The position numbers and the translations under genes were made by a program. Positions 3,524 through 32,909 of a stretch of DNA of 39,910 nt are shown piece after piece (the stretch's first letter is position 1; each line of letters starts with the position of its first letter). The stretch is from NCBI GenBank assembly GCA_902799075.1, contig CADBYZ010000043.1, positions 1-39,910 on the forward strand. Reading direction: 5' to 3'. The stretch comes from Oscillospiraceae bacterium. GTDB taxonomy: Bacteria > Bacillota > Clostridia > Oscillospirales > Oscillospiraceae. Below the pieces are notes generated by a model that was not told the DNA's origin, did no database searches, and saw only the letters and a program-made list of their open reading frames with translations.

Positions 3524-4495
3524 CTCTGTTCCTCCAGAATCTCCCGGACATTTTTGAGGAAAATGTCCATCTGCTCCCTGGTGCCGATGGTGATGCGGCT
3601 CCATTCCTCGATGCCCGGCTGGGCAAAGTGGCGGATCAGCACGCCGCGCTCCTTGAGCTTTAAGTACAGCTCTTTGCCGCCGATCTTCTCCGCCCTCGCA
3701 AAGATGAAATTCGACGAGGAGGGCAGCACCTCAAAGCCCAGCTTTTCAAGCGCCGCCGTGGTGTAGGCGCGGTTATCCATGATGGTGCGGCAGTTTGCTC
3801 TTGTGGTCTCCTCGTCCAGCAGCACGCCGAGGCCGACAGCCAGGGTCATGGAGTTTACGTTATAGGGGTTGATGGAATACTTGATGGCGTTGAGGTCGGC
3901 AATCAGCGCCTTGCTGCCCGCGGCAAAGCCCAGGCGCGCGCCTGCCATGGAGCGCGACTTGGAGAAGGTCTGCACCACCAGGAGGTTCTCATAGTCCTGA
4001 ATCAGCGGGATGCAGGTCTCGCCGCCGAAGTCCACATAGGCCTCGTCGATGACCACTACGCTGTCGGGGTTGTGCTTTATCCTCCGGCGCGATGGTAAAG
4101 TCCGCCCGCAGGGGGATGGTAGTATAAGGGACATGGTTCAGGTCCGCGTAGACGGGGTAAAAGCCGTAGCTGATGCTGGGGAAGGCGGCCTGCCTTCTGT
4201 CGTCGCAGAAGGCCATGAAGGAGAAGTTCAGAAGCTCGTCCGAGCCGTTGCCGAGGATAATGTTGTCAGCGTCGATGCCATGGAGCTCGGCAAGCCGGGA
4301 GCGCAGGTCGATGCACTGAATCTCCGGATACAGGTTCAGAGGCCGCAGATGCTCCCGCGCGAAGGCCATGGCCTTTTCCGACGGCGGGAAGGGGCACTCG
4401 TTAGTGTTTAATTTCGTGACGTTCAGCACCTTCGGCTGCTCGCCGGGGGTGTAGGGGACGAGATCCTTGTATTTGTAGCTGAAAAAGCGGCTCAT
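3520..4495 (-). pseudogene. hisC: Histidinol-phosphate aminotransferase, broken by internal deletion/frameshift
   Basis: HisC is the PLP-dependent transaminase that makes histidinol phosphate. The N-terminal part (4495 down to about 4084, [20 protein letters not shown]) and the C-terminal part (about 4080 down to 3520, HNPDSVVVIDEAYVDFGGE) are each well conserved but lie in different frames. At the join, the N-terminal reading APED runs directly into HNPDS. Relatives as I remember them have about 30 residues between these blocks, including the ANPNAPTG motif that contacts PLP. That segment is absent here. The PLP lysine block VQTFSKSRSMAGARLGFA is intact. The gene is 976 nt, one more than a multiple of three. 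Either this is a true deletion or an assembly error. The four-base overlaps with hisD and hisB are preserved. Confidence 0.85.
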
Positions 4496-28019: not shown

Positions 28020-28105
28020 TGGTGCCGGTGGCCGGACTCGAACCGGCACGGGATCGCTCCCAGGGGATTTTAAGTCCCCGGTGTCTACCGTTCCACCACA
28101 CCGGC
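28020..28105 (-). tRNA. tRNA-Leu (anticodon UAA)
   Basis: The minus strand folds as a class II tRNA. The acceptor GCCGGTG pairs with CACCGGC, followed by A and an encoded CCA. The anticodon stem GGGGA/TCCCC holds the loop CTTAAAA, giving anticodon TAA. A long variable arm (GGGA-GCGA-TCCC) and a T-arm with GGTTCGAGTCC follow. It reads UUA/UUG leucine codons. The 3' end overlaps a strong hairpin. Confidence 0.95.
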
Positions 28106-29117: not shown

Positions 29118-29414
29118 TTACTCGGGACGGGTGACGATGAGACGACGCAGGATGCCGTCGGTAATACCGAGGATACGGTCAAGCTCTGCGGGCAGCTCGG
29201 GGCCGCTGGTGAACTTCATCAGCACGCGGTAACCCTCGGAAAGGTAGTTGATTTCGTAAGCCAGCTTCTGCTTACCCATCTCCTCCAGTTCCTCGAGCGT
29301 ACCATTTGCTTCCACAAGACCCTTGAACTTTTCGACGACCGCGGCGTACTCTTCCTCCGTGAAATTGGGGTTGACGATGTACATCACTTCGTACTTTTCG
29401 CTTGCTTTTGCCAT
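29118..29414 (-). CDS. rpsF: 30S ribosomal protein bS6
   Basis: A 98-residue ribosomal protein of the platform. Recognised by EKYEVMYIVNPNFTEEEYAAVVEKFKG, the GKQKLAYEINYLSEGYRVLMKF beta strand and the C-terminal ILRRLIVTRPE. AGGAGG lies eight bases before the ATG at 29414. It is the first gene of its operon and has a leader with structure consistent with binding of the S6:S18 complex. Confidence 0.97.
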   Translation of the reverse strand: MAKASEKYEVMYIVNPNFTEEEYAAVVEKFKGLVEANGTLEELEEMGKQKLAYEINYLSEGYRVLMKFTSGPELPAELDRILGITDGILRRLIVTRPE

Positions 29415-29619: not shown

Positions 29620-29637
29620 AAGAACGAAAGGGCGGTG

Positions 29638-30939
29638 GTGAATGTGGCAAAGGGCGCATTGTCCAAGGTCATGAAATACGAGCTGAGCTATCTGGACGGC
29701 TGCGGCGATTTCCAGAACATGCAGAAAGAGCTCTGGGCCTTGCAGCGGCAGACGCGGGAGATTTTGAACCGCACCATACAGATCGCCTATCACTGGGACT
29801 ACACCGACCGGGAGCACTTCAAGAAAACCGGGCAGCATTTGGATGTGAAGGCCGAGACAGGCTATAAGCGACTGGACGGATATATCTACGACGAGCTGAA
29901 AGAGACTGTTCAGAATTTCGCGTCGGTAAATGTAAACGCTACGATCCAGAAGGCATGGGCCAAATACAGATCCTCCAAGGCCGATGTGCTGCGCGGCGAC
30001 ATGTCCCTGCCCTCCTACAAGAGCGACCAGCCACTTGTCCTGCATGCACAGAGTATCAAGCTGTCTGAGAACAAGGACGGGCCTGCCTTGCAGGTGACGC
30101 TGTTTTCCAATACTCACAAAAAGTCCTGCGGTTATTCCAATGTCCGCTTTGCCTTCCGGCTCCACGACGCGACACAGCGGTCGATTTTCAAAAATGTTCT
30201 GTCCGGGGAATACGGTCTGGGTCAAAGCCAGATAGTCTATAAGCGCCCAAAGTGGTTCCTGTACCTCACCTACAACTTTTCACCGGAGCAGCACGGGCTG
30301 GACCCGGACAAGATTCTGGGCGTAGACCTGGGGGAGAGCACCGCGCTTTACGCAAGTTCTCTCGGCGATTACGGGTCTCTCCGTATTGAGGGAGGCGAGG
30401 TCACGGCGTTTGCAAAGCAATTGGAGGCACGCAAGCGCTCCCTGCAAAAGCAGGCGGCGCACTGCGGCGAGGGCCGCGTCGGACATGGGACAAAGGCACG
30501 GGTTTCAGACGTGTACAAGGCGGAGGACAAGATCGCCAATTTCCGAAACACGGTCAACCACCGCTACAGTAAGAAGCTGATCGACTACGCTATCCAGCAC
30601 CAGTACGGCACGATACAAATGGAAGAGCTCTCCGGCATCAAGCAGGACACCGGCTTTCCGAAGTTTCTCCAGCACTGGACCTATTATGATCTTCAGCAGA
30701 AGATCGAAGCAAAAGCGAAAGAAAACGGGATCAACTTCATCAAGGTCGATCCCTCCTATACCTCTCAGCGGTGCAGCAAATGTGGGAACATAGACAGTAA
30801 TAACCGACCGTCGCAGGCTGTGTTCTGCTGCACAAAATGCGGTTTCCGAGCAAATGCGGACTTCAACGCCTCGCAGAATCTGTCCATCCCGGAAATCGAC
30901 AAAATCATCAAAAAAGAACGCGGTGCGAACACGAAGTGA
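29638..30939 (+). CDS. cas12f: Miniature type V CRISPR effector, Cas12f1-like
   Basis: A ~433-residue RNA-guided nuclease candidate. The N-terminal ~215 residues (WED/REC-like) include LRGDMSLPSYKSDQP and NVLSGEYGLGQSQI. The RuvC domain has the first catalytic Asp in ILGVDLGES (~D230), the Glu in GTIQMEELSGI (~E329) and the last Asp in RANADFNASQNL (~D408). The target-strand zinc ribbon has RCSKCGN and CTKCGF. KIANFRNTVNHRYS and WTYYDLQQKI are nearly the same as in Cas12f1 of Acidibacillus sulfuroxidans (422 residues), recalled from memory. No HNH domain. A TnpB transposon protein is the alternative, but the adjoining array and anti-repeat, and the lack of tnpA, argue for Cas12f. In-frame GTGs at 29635, 29638 and 29644 make the exact start uncertain. 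GC is lower than in flanking genes. Confidence 0.88.
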   Translation: MNVAKGALSKVMKYELSYLDGCGDFQNMQKELWALQRQTREILNRTIQIAYHWDYTDREHFKKTGQHLDVKAETGYKRLDGYIYDELKETVQNFASVNVNATIQKAWAKYRSSKADVLRGDMSLPSYKSDQPLVLHAQSIKLSENKDGPALQVTLFSNTHKKSCGYSNVRFAFRLHDATQRSIFKNVLSGEYGLGQSQIVYKRPKWFLYLTYNFSPEQHGLDPDKILGVDLGESTALYASSLGDYGSLRIEGGEVTAFAKQLEARKRSLQKQAAHCGEGRVGHGTKARVSDVYKAEDKIANFRNTVNHRYSKKLIDYAIQHQYGTIQMEELSGIKQDTGFPKFLQHWTYYDLQQKIEAKAKENGINFIKVDPSYTSQRCSKCGNIDSNNRPSQAVFCCTKCGFRANADFNASQNLSIPEIDKIIKKERGANTK

Positions 30940-31053
30940 TCGCGGATTTCCATACAGGTTCGCACTGCTTTTGGGGCGACTTCCCGTCCCGAAATCGAGA
31001 CAGTGACCGTCAGACTCTGCTTTGCAGAGCAGGTATTTGCGCGTTTTTGCAGC
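30923..31053 (+). ncRNA. Candidate tracrRNA of the Cas12f locus
   Basis: This 131-nt stretch overlaps the last codons of cas12f and reaches the array. It holds GTGCGAAC/GTTCGCAC (30923-30930 with 30958-30965), a small hairpin at 30977-30997 (CGA-C-TTC ... GAA-A-TCG) and CTCTGC-TTT-GCAGAG (31015-31029). Last comes an anti-repeat at 31039-31053, GCGCGTTTTTGCAGC. It pairs with the first 14 bases of the repeat, leaving one T bulged and one C-T mismatch. In known Cas12f1 systems the tracrRNA also ends in an anti-repeat for the 5' part of the repeat. CTTC and CCC at 30980-30990 could pair weakly with the repeat 3' part. No promoter or terminator is defined. Confidence 0.6.
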
Positions 31054-31807
31054 TGCAACACGCGCGGAAACGCGGGTTGAAGGGTGTCGCCCGGCGACTT
31101 CTGTGTCCTTGCCGCCGACGCTGCAACACGCGCGGAAACGCGGGTTGAAGGGCAAAGTAAATGATTGTTTATGTGCGTTTCGTTATGCTGCAACACGCGC
31201 GGAAACGCGGGTTGAAGGTTGCTTTTGGCGGCGCGCGCCTTGTCGCTTTCGCCGGCTGCAACACGCGCGGAAACGCGGGTTGAAGGGCATTCCGGGCAGA
31301 CGACAAAGCCGCCCGATCTGATTGCTGCAACACGCGCGGAAACGCGGGTTGAAGGAAAGCCGATGATGTGATGACGGCGGCAGCCGTCGGGCTGCAACAC
31401 GCGCGGAAACGCGGGTTGAAGGACTATCCAATCAGCGACCATGTACTGGCGCGCGGGGCTGCAACACGCGCGGAAACGCGGGTTGAAGGATTCGCCCTGC
31501 TCGTCCGGTGAGTACGCGATCAGGCTGCAACACGCGCGGAAACGCGGGTTGAAGGATTCCCAAAATTCGCCCAGGGTGTTGAGGTTTGGCTGCAACACGC
31601 GCGGAAATGCGGGTTGAAGGATGTTTGTACCACCTGCAATGCCGTTTGCGGCAAGCTGCAACACGCGCGGAAACGCGGGTTGAAGGTGTTCGATGTCGTT
31701 GACCATGTTCACGGGGTTTCGCTGCAACACGCGCGGAAACGCGGGTTGAAGGATTTGCCCTCCTCATGTGTCAGGAAGCCGCCCTTTGCTGCAACACGCG
31801 CGCAAAC
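31052..31807 (+). CRISPR. CRISPR array: 12 repeats of 32 nt (last one degenerate), 11 spacers
   Basis: Repeats start at 31052, 31120, 31187, 31255, 31324, 31391, 31458, 31524, 31589, 31655, 31721 and 31788. The repeat begins GCTGCAACACGCGCGG and ends GCGGGTTGAAGG. CAAC and GTTG, and inner CGCG and CGCG, can pair. Ten repeats are identical; the ninth (31589) has one C-to-T change. The last keeps only the first ~15 bases before diverging. Spacers are 36, 35, 36, 37, 35, 35, 34, 33, 34, 34 and 35 nt. The degenerate end marks the trailer. The array therefore reads in the same direction as cas12f, with a GTTGAAGG handle 5' of each spacer, as type V effectors need. Confidence 0.97.
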
Positions 31808-31821
31808 CACACCCTCACACC

Positions 31822-31970
31822 GTAGGGGCTGACGCCCTCGGCAGCCCGGCAGTACAATCTCATATTCAGCATCCCGCCCCGGCGAATACGTACACCGTTC
31901 GTATTCGCCGGGGCAGTCTGCTATTTTCACCATTTCCTCGGCCCGGGCCGCCGGGGGCGTCGGCCCCTAC
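31822..31970. repeat. 149-bp palindromic (MITE-like) element after the array
   Basis: The outer arms 31822-31849 (starting GTAGGGGCTGACGCCC) and 31943-31970 (ending GGGCGTCGGCCCCTAC) are complementary over 28 bases except three positions, all G-T-compatible. Nested inside, 31877-31890 and 31900-31913 form a perfect 14-bp stem with a nine-base loop. There is no coding frame. Its arrangement fits a non-autonomous intergenic palindrome of the kind scattered in clostridial genomes. It begins 14 bases after the array degenerates. Confidence 0.75.
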
Positions 31971-32078: not shown

Positions 32079-32909
32079 ATGGCGCAGAGTACAGCGAACG
32101 AAAGCGAACGCATCCCACATGCCTGCCTGATCTGCGCACCGAGCGCGGAGGCGGCGCTGGACAAGGCCAGAGAGCTTGCGTCCAGGGCCGTCTGCTCCGG
32201 GACGGGTTTATTGAAACCCTGCGGGGCGTGCCGGGACTGCCGGAAGGTCGCGGCGGGGATACACCCGGACGTGATCACTCTCACCCGCGCGGCCGACGAC
32301 AAGGGAAAGCAGAAGCAGAACATCACCGTCGACCAGATCCGCGCCCTCTCGGCGGACGCCATCGTCCTGCCGAACGAGGCAAAGCGCAAGGTCTACATCA
32401 TCGACGGCGCCGAGACCATGAACCCCGCCGCCCAGAACGCCGCCCTCAAGCTTCTGGAGGAGCCGCCCGCCGCGGTGGTGTTCCTGCTGTGCACGGTGCG
32501 GCCCATGCAGCTGCTGGAGACGGTGCGCTCCCGCTGCGCGCTGGTGAAGCTCCAGGGCGCGGAGGACCCCGAGGGCCCGGACGAGGCGGCGCAGGAGCTG
32601 GCAGCGGGCTATCTCAAGGCGGTCAACACCCGGGACGACGCGCAGATCCTCCGCTGGTGCGTACAGAATGAGAACATCGACACCCAGGCCATGGCGGCCT
32701 TTCTGGAGGCGGTGCGCCTGCGGCTGTCGGACATGCTGTGCCTGCGCCTTAAAAGCGGGCGGCTTTCCCGCGCGGAGCTTCTGGGCCTGTACAGGCTCAG
32801 CGAGCGGTGTACCCAATATCTGAAGGTCAATACAAACGTAAAGCAATTATTCGGGCTGCTGGCGGTGGACGCCCTGCCCGACGGAAACAGAGGAAACGCA
32901 ATTGATTGA
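32079..32909 (+). CDS. holB: DNA polymerase III subunit delta'
   Basis: A 276-residue clamp-loader subunit. It has the zinc cysteines in KPCGACRDCRKV and the sensor-type blocks VDQIRALSADAIVLPNEAKRKVYIIDGAETMNPAAQNAALKLLEEPPA. The SRC motif appears in VRSRCALVKL. The Walker A loop is degenerate (SAEAALDKAR in place of GxxGxGKT), as expected for delta', which does not hydrolyse ATP. It starts within the first AT-poor stretch after the CRISPR module, and overlaps ricT by eight bases. Confidence 0.88.
   Translation: MAQSTANESERIPHACLICAPSAEAALDKARELASRAVCSGTGLLKPCGACRDCRKVAAGIHPDVITLTRAADDKGKQKQNITVDQIRALSADAIVLPNEAKRKVYIIDGAETMNPAAQNAALKLLEEPPAAVVFLLCTVRPMQLLETVRSRCALVKLQGAEDPEGPDEAAQELAAGYLKAVNTRDDAQILRWCVQNENIDTQAMAAFLEAVRLRLSDMLCLRLKSGRLSRAELLGLYRLSERCTQYLKVNTNVKQLFGLLAVDALPDGNRGNAID

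What the first reader, a model, noticed from the sequence alone, without database searches (positions are those of the whole stretch)
29638..31807. Compact, self-contained Cas12f1-type CRISPR locus in a clostridial chromosome
A ~433-residue RuvC and zinc-ribbon protein is directly followed by a structured RNA region with an anti-repeat, and then by a 12-repeat array in the same direction. All three RuvC acidic residues and the four zinc cysteines are present, so it should be catalytically active. Sequence blocks match my memory of AsCas12f1, one of the smallest known CRISPR nucleases. The whole system fits in 2.2 kb between rpsF and holB-ricT. No cas1, cas2 or cas4 is nearby. The locus is complete enough to be a distinct small member of type V-F1.
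Basis: partly seen in the sequence, partly recalled or inferred. Interest (0 to 1): 0.92.

Follow-up and report, generated by a model that had tools for sequence, protein, structure and literature searches.

The report
Cas12f1 CRISPR locus, broken guide RNA
This is a close relative of a known miniature CRISPR nuclease (OsCas12f1) with an intact enzyme gene and a phage-derived memory array, but its helper RNA lacks a stretch that its relatives keep, so as assembled it is probably disabled rather than complete.

Summary
The nuclease gene and array are real. The protein (434-codon frame, likely 431 aa) is a Cas12f1 of the OsCas12f1 clade: 66% identical to OsCas12f1 (PDB 9nzq) and 86% to a same-genus relative, with the RuvC triad and zinc cysteines present. 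The array has 11 full 32-nt repeats plus a truncated last one. One of 7 spacers scanned matches two related phages 34/34, next to 5'-TTT.

A covariance model from six relatives shows a conserved tracrRNA (stems 1, 2 and 3), followed by an anti-repeat. The window keeps stem 1, the stem-1 loop that pairs with the repeat end, and half of stem 2. The 52-54 nt that follow in three close relatives are gone: the closing strand of stem 2, stem 3 and the anti-repeat. No other copy was found in the held genome (76% complete).

Most likely this is a recently truncated, probably inactive V-F1 system. An assembly artefact, or an unusually reduced natural guide, cannot be excluded. It is a new member of a known kind.

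The parts
29635..30939 (+). cas12f1 gene (open frame from GTG 29635; likely start GTG 29644, 431 aa)
   Evidence: PADLOC Cas12f 7.9e-127; 66% identical to OsCas12f1 (L003 protein = PDB 9nzq, 433/433); catalytic and zinc residues invariant
30973..31034 (+). 5' half of the tracrRNA, retained (stem 1, 5' strand of stem 2, inner hairpin)
   Evidence: matches model R1 positions 1 to about 62; whole match 40 bits
30980..30983 (+). CTTC in the stem-1 loop, complementary to GAAG at the repeat's 3' end (pseudoknot contact, retained)
   Evidence: 9 of 10 rows have a 4-bp complement (L005 has 3), with four different pairs
31034..31035 (+). deletion point: 52-54 nt of tracrRNA present in L004, L002 and L003 (closing strand of stem 2, stem 3, anti-repeat) are absent here
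   Evidence: closing strand and stem 3 also seen in L005, L015, L016, L017
31035..31051 (+). leader end, alignable with relatives; holds CGCGTTTTTGC (31040-31050), a possible re-registered anti-repeat
   Evidence: complementarity not clearly above chance
31052..31807 (+). CRISPR array: 11 full 32-nt repeats plus a truncated last repeat, 11 spacers of 33-37 nt
31490..31523 (+). spacer 7: 34/34 match to two IMG/VR contigs of related phages (L019, L020), 5' flank GGGCGTTT in both
29118..29414 (-). rpsF, left neighbour
   Evidence: Ribosomal_S6 1.3e-27
32079..32909 (+). holB, right neighbour
   Evidence: DNA_pol3_delta2 4e-41

Best explanation
This is a type V-F1 locus of the OsCas12f1 clade whose ancestor worked as its relatives do. 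A Cas12f1 dimer would carry one guide, made of a tracrRNA encoded downstream of the gene and a crRNA from the array, and cut phage DNA next to a 5' T-rich PAM (steps shown in print for OsCas12f1, inferred here). In this lineage an internal deletion of 52-54 nt, perhaps slippage between two GTAAT copies seen in the closest relative, removed the closing strand of stem 2, all of stem 3 and the anti-repeat. Nuclease, stem 1 with its repeat-pairing loop, leader end and array remain. As assembled, the locus cannot form the standard dual guide, so it is most likely recently inactivated. Shown: the missing segment, its conservation in relatives, the intact protein and array. Inferred: loss of function and its recency.
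For: The segment is conserved. In R1, built from L002, L003, L004, L005, L016 and L017, 93.5% of cells pair, 13 of 23 pairs change on both sides, and 0 of 500 shuffles reach either; stem 3 is 100% paired with 5 of 6 pairs changing on both sides. Copies not used for building score 76 (L015), 50 (L018), 103 (second L017 copy), 89 (L063) and 95 (second L016 copy, whole in L068). The window scores 40, with 2 of 6 stem-2 pairs non-standard and 33 model positions replaced by 9 nt. Among 18 non-window matches to R1 examined (L065 set aside as it looks like part of a coding gene, L068 counted with L016), 17 keep the closing strand CTCGA/CTCGG; the exception is L052:3833-3902. Nothing else in the held genome matches R1 or GCACATAGTAATCCGTGC with up to 3 mismatches. 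The anti-repeat compensates between L004 (GTGACTTG/TGAGTCAC) and L003 (GCGGCTTG/TGAGCCGC), and the window has no complement to its GCGGGTTG. Recency: dN to L002 is 0.085 while 75% of synonymous sites differ, and the window branch (0.072) is no longer than L002's (0.087). Past use: spacer 7 is a perfect phage match with 5'-TTT.
Against: The protein shows no relaxed selection and 10 of the 11 full repeats are identical, the other having one change, as expected of a system still in use. Bit score alone proves little: more divergent Cas12f tracrRNA matches score below the window (L052 39, 32 and 22; L054 38; L055 29; L053 21 and 18); the argument rests on the missing segment. Four of six stem-2 pairs can still be drawn in the window. 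In print, an OsCas12f sgRNA lacking stem 4 was ten times more active (PMC13186708, section 8). By my count on L003 that stem is the anti-repeat:repeat duplex, so loss of the anti-repeat alone need not be fatal. The deletion rests on one assembly and reads were not available.
Confidence: 0.6

Rival explanations
1. The deletion is an assembly error or a minor strain haplotype; the real cell carries an intact OsCas12f1-type tracrRNA and a working V-F1 system.
For: G000 has 116 contigs and 75.7% completeness, as a metagenome assembly would; protein under strong constraint; homogeneous array.
Against: The joint has only about 5 nt of direct repeat (GTAAT in L002), too short to mislead an assembler by itself; the flanks align on both sides. 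The repeat base that pairs with a G of the anti-repeat in L002, L003 and L004 is changed (C to G) in all 11 full window repeats.
Confidence: 0.2
2. A working V-F1 system with a reduced natural guide. The kept 5' half of the tracrRNA holds the repeat end by the CTTC/GAAG pseudoknot, and CGCGTTTTTGC at the leader end serves as a re-registered anti-repeat, or the half-tracrRNA acts in cis with repeat 1 as a natural single guide.
For: Pseudoknot contact kept, with four different pairs across loci; 11-nt complement, 9 Watson-Crick and 2 G-U pairs, duplex energy -18.5 within the six relatives' range of -12.4 to -20.8 for a 22-nt handle; leader end plus repeat 1 folds into a long hairpin (z -2.62; L003 gives -2.36); stem 4 dispensable in the published OsCas12f sgRNA; no relaxed selection.
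Against: Complement not clearly above chance (10/200; 65/300; 73, 17 and 19 of 100). Stem 3 and the closing strand of stem 2 are present in all 9 full-length copies scoring above 45 bits (6 of them built the model; a tenth is cut by a contig end). Truncating the OsCas12f1 sgRNA stem impaired activity in a human-cell reporter (PMC10090079 passage).
Confidence: 0.17
3. An IS200/IS605 TnpB with an omega RNA that sits by chance beside an array.
For: NCBIfam's general TnpB model matches (NF040570, 180 bits against a cut-off of 100), as Cas12f and TnpB are related.
Against: Best models are Cas12f/Cas12u3 (421.8 and 413.8 bits); 100/100 clade with OsCas12f1, Cas12f side split 98/94 from two of three TnpB-type rows (the third, L058, labelled so by me, is an unresolved long branch); array in direct continuation; immediate neighbours are rpsF and holB.
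Confidence: 0.01

Closest known systems
OsCas12f1 (Oscillibacter sp., 433 aa; PDB 9nzq/9nzs/9nzt; PMC10090079, PMC13186708)
   Same: 66% identical protein; same gene - tracrRNA - array order, seen directly in L003, whose protein is 433/433 identical to 9nzq; same stem 1; similar repeat ends (GTTGCAAC against GCTGCAAC; TTGAAGG in both); T-rich flank at one protospacer
   Different: Window lacks the closing strand of stem 2, stem 3 and the anti-repeat; the repeat differs in its middle and at the anti-repeat contact (GCGGGTTG against GCGGCTTG); more repeats (11 full plus one partial against 3 in L003)
L002, uncultured Clostridiales RUG518 (ONPN01000025.1)
   Same: 86% identical protein, same genus (L014 in G446 is the same contig), similar leader end
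   Different: Intact tracrRNA; different chromosomal site (no rpsF, holB or ricT match in the 11.3 kb held); different spacers; 5 repeats
AsCas12f1 (PDB 8j12 and 8j1j named so in PMC13186708; 8j3r, 7wju and 8dzj by recall)
   Same: Type V-F1/V-U3 effector of similar size and domain make-up
   Different: Far lower score than OsCas12f1 (347 against 682 bits); outside the clade of the window

Membership tests
Cas12f1 effector (type V-F1, formerly V-U3) | Sequence homology and phylogenetic placement with Cas12f1 | tested here: met
Cas12f1 effector (type V-F1, formerly V-U3) | RuvC catalytic triad and zinc-ribbon cysteines | tested here: met
   D231, E330, D409; C380, C383, C399, C402. OsCas12f1 D228/D406 are essential in print (PMC10090079, section 6)
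Cas12f1 effector (type V-F1, formerly V-U3) | Works as a dimer on one guide RNA | not testable with these tools
Type V-F1 CRISPR locus | CRISPR array next to the effector gene | tested here: met
Type V-F1 CRISPR locus | Array spacers target mobile elements next to a 5' T-rich PAM | tested here: inconclusive
   1 of 7 spacers scanned matches two related phages, flank GTTT; agrees with TTN and with YTTH except for G at -4; one protospacer cannot define a PAM
Complete dual-guide OsCas12f1-type system | tracrRNA with stem 1, stem 2, stem 3 and an anti-repeat to the crRNA | tested here: not met
   stem 1 and half of stem 2 only; no other copy found in the held genome
Complete dual-guide OsCas12f1-type system | Complement between the repeat's 3' end and the stem-1 loop (pseudoknot) | tested here: met
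IS200/IS605 TnpB | Adjacent tnpA | tested here: not met
   Immediate neighbours are rpsF and holB; frames in the gap overlap the gene or the array and were not themselves searched
IS200/IS605 TnpB | Transposon ends bounding the unit | not tested
   No rpsF match in the up to 1.5 kb held upstream of holB in 29 relatives, so no empty site could be compared

The most novel reading that the evidence does not exclude
A natural V-F1 system that still works after losing the tracrRNA core and anti-repeat. The crRNA would be held by the stem-1 loop pseudoknot plus a new leader-end complement, or repeat 1 would act in cis as a single guide. That would be a step between dual-guide CRISPR and the single omega RNA of TnpB, and a natural counterpart of the engineered stem-4 deletion in OsCas12f.
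Probability: 0.15. Interest if true: 0.7.

Novelty: new member of a known kind. Interest (0 to 1): 0.4.

Why it matters
The protein extends the OsCas12f1 clade, a source of miniature editors, by a 66%-identical member. The RNA side matters more: relatives give a covariation-backed tracrRNA model with two separate repeat contacts, and the window shows what is lost when a natural locus drops the core. If the locus still works, it would define a minimal natural Cas12f guide. If not, it warns that tracrRNA finders based on loose complementarity can call a broken locus complete: my implementation of the pairing rule in PMC10090079 finds two 'anti-repeats' in the window, one in L003 and none in the intact L002 and L004.

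Tried and rejected
TnpB/IS605 origin: rejected by models, tree and neighbours.

A second tracrRNA elsewhere in the genome: none found with R1 or a stem-3 pattern with up to 3 mismatches; the genome is 75.7% complete, so absence is not proof.

Anti-repeat by loose pairing rule: uninformative. The best complement in the window is weak against shuffles. In one search single relatives do not beat shuffles convincingly either (12 to 287 of 300 for the 8 relative rows); the evidence there is the shared place and the compensating changes. Two rows used one of several differing repeats: L016 the third of three (the first differs at the contact) and L005 the first of two.

Spacer targets: blastn of the whole array found nothing convincing in phages (7 records, all E about 10) or plasmids (55 records, best E 0.02, a 54-nt match at 82%). 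Exact 20-nt scans of viral contigs covered 7 of 11 spacers (2, 4, 6, 7, 8, 10, 11); spacers 1, 3, 5 and 9 were not scanned. Spacer 4's hit is chance (14 of 37 mismatches). The targeted phage region was not found in 102 genus genomes, which without a positive control shows little. No close relative of the protein was found in viral contigs.

Empty-site comparison failed because the gene beside holB differs among relatives. Structure prediction failed for lack of alignment depth, so no fold search was run. dN/dS could not be given as a number because synonymous sites are saturated. Cas1 was the only adaptation gene searched in the whole genome.

A parallel I dropped on checking: I first took the pRUMAL01 cas12f (L052) as array-less, but one search shows three repeats upstream of it, beside a fuller tracrRNA match. 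Its truncated downstream copy is therefore a spare remnant and only a weak parallel. My odds did not rest on it and are unchanged.

Literature: searches (20 of 25 papers listed; 9 of 9; 15 of 47; none found). No title or abstract start in those lists describes a natural Cas12f locus with a truncated tracrRNA. Supplements could not be read, so I cannot say whether this locus is among the 34 systems of PMC10090079. Seen: PMC10090079 abstract, outline, sections 6 and 14, passages; PMC13186708 passages and section 8; PMC7229846 passages; the rest as listings only.

Full report
WHAT IS THERE. The frame 29635-30939 (+) encodes 434 codons; relatives beginning MAKG or MGKG suggest GTG 29644 as the start. 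It is a Cas12f: PADLOC Cas12f 7.9e-127 and Cas12u3 2.2e-124, Pfam Cas12f1-like_TNB 7.1e-23. Its best solved relative is 9nzq (682 bits), followed by AsCas12f1 entries (up to 347 bits). PMC13186708 assigns 9nzq to OsCas12f, and the protein of L003 (Oscillibacter sp. RGIG6662) is 433/433 identical to it. L003 is therefore an OsCas12f1 locus and a direct yardstick. The window protein is 66% identical to it and 86% to L002. A tree of 18 proteins places the window with L002 (100/99) inside the OsCas12f1 clade (100/100). Two of three TnpB-type rows fall outside the Cas12f side at 98/94; the third (L058, my label) is an unresolved long branch.

ARRAY AND CONTEXT. The array has 11 full repeats (10 identical, one with a single change) and a truncated twelfth. 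The repeat pattern occurs nowhere else in the held genome. Cas1 was not found there. The unit lies between rpsF and holB-ricT. The closest relative, in the same genus, has its locus at another site (no rpsF, holB or ricT match in the 11.3 kb held), and 2 of 102 genus genomes, the window's own included, carry such a gene, so the gene is rare and appears to have moved. Of 7 spacers scanned, spacer 7 matches two contigs perfectly (34/34). They are related phages, 95% identical over 2.3 kb, and L020 encodes a tail fibre, an integrase and an endolysin. The 5' flank GGGCGTTT agrees with the TTN of enOsCas12f1 and with the YTTH of OsCas12f1 except at -4 (PMC10090079). This supports past use as anti-phage immunity, on one case.

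THE GUIDE RNA. Aligned with L002, L003 and L004, the stretch between gene and array has one gap in the window where the relatives have 53, 54 and 52 nt. I built a model from six relatives (L002, L003, L004, L005, L016, L017). Individual folds of those six and of L015 agree on stem 1, the base of stem 2 and stem 3. Covariation is strong: 13 of 23 pairs change on both sides, 93.5% of cells pair, 0 of 500 shuffles reach either, and every slid version is far worse. Copies not used for building score 76 (L015), 50 (L018), 103 (second L017 copy), 89 (L063) and 95 (second L016 copy, whole in the overlapping contig L068). More divergent Cas12f loci (L052-L055) score 18-39, so the window's 40 bits are not low in themselves; what counts is which part is missing. 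Positions 1 to about 62 fit. The closing strand of stem 2 is then replaced by a stretch that pairs at 4 of 6 places, and 33 model positions including stem 3 are replaced by 9 nt. Of 18 non-window matches examined, 17 keep the closing strand; the exception is L052:3833-3902, a spare remnant in a plasmid that has fuller copies and an array upstream (L065 set aside, L068 counted with L016). In 6 of 8 relative rows the 8 nt beside stem 3 pair with the same place of the repeat; L002 has 6 bp there, and L015 pairs in a shifted register. Changes compensate between loci: GTGACTTG/TGAGTCAC (L004), GCGGCTTG/TGAGCCGC (L003), GTGAGTTG/CGGCTCAC (L005). The two tandem copies in L017 differ by one base on each side and keep all pairs by wobble, which is not compensation. 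The window's corresponding GCGGGTTG has no complement in the gap. No second tracrRNA was found in the genome.

A SECOND CONTACT. The repeat's last nucleotides are complementary to the stem-1 loop in all ten rows tested (4 bp in nine, 3 in L005), with four different pairs: GAAG/CUUC, CAAG/CUUG, CGAG/CUCG, UGAG/CUCA. Non-cognate combinations average 2.65 bp, and 7 of 74 reach 4. The window keeps this contact.

WHAT IT MEANS. In print, deleting positions 106-125 (stem 4) of the OsCas12f sgRNA raised plasmid interference tenfold, and deleting 40-58 had no effect (PMC13186708, section 8). Counting on L003 from GGGGCGAC, 106-125 is the anti-repeat:repeat duplex to within one base; this mapping is mine. 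Loss of the anti-repeat alone might thus be tolerated in a fused guide. The window also loses stem 3 and most of the base of stem 2, which all 9 full-length copies above 45 bits keep (6 of these built the model). In a human-cell reporter, truncating the OsCas12f1 sgRNA stem impaired activity (PMC10090079 passage).

TIMING. Synonymous differences to L002 are 75% (saturated) while dN is 0.085, and the window's branch is not longer than L002's. The protein was under constraint for nearly all of its history. The deletion is therefore recent, or not real in the cell, or compatible with function. The closest relative has GTAAT on both sides of the missing stretch, which suggests slippage (by eye).

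VERDICT. A real Cas12f1 locus of the OsCas12f1 clade with a truncated tracrRNA, most likely recently disabled (0.6). Artefact (0.2) and reduced working guide (0.17) remain open and are separable by reads and one interference assay.

Noticed in passing
R1 gave five matches on three contigs of this genome; two of the five are one copy seen on two overlapping contigs.
   Followed up: partly
   Followed up: partly
L054 (Alicyclobacillus phage MMB025): A phage-borne Cas12f with a tracrRNA-like match (38 bits) and two repeat families (1958-2070 and 2262-2448, the latter annotated CRISPR), all upstream of the gene, the reverse of the usual order.
   Followed up: partly
L052 (Ruminococcus albus plasmid pRUMAL01): cas12f with a tracrRNA-like match and three repeats about 2.2 kb upstream (1-80 and 98-265), a second match just before the gene (2217-2322) and a truncated one after it (3833-3902).
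   Followed up: partly
window 31868-31922: Inverted repeat with 26-nt arms, 85% complementary, 3 nt apart, just downstream of the array.
   Followed up: no
window 28023-28105 (-): tRNA gene found by Rfam (56 bits), near the rpsR-ssb-rpsF genes.
   Followed up: no
L020:5438-5471: The protospacer of spacer 7 lies between the tail-fibre gene and the integrase gene of the phage.
   Followed up: partly
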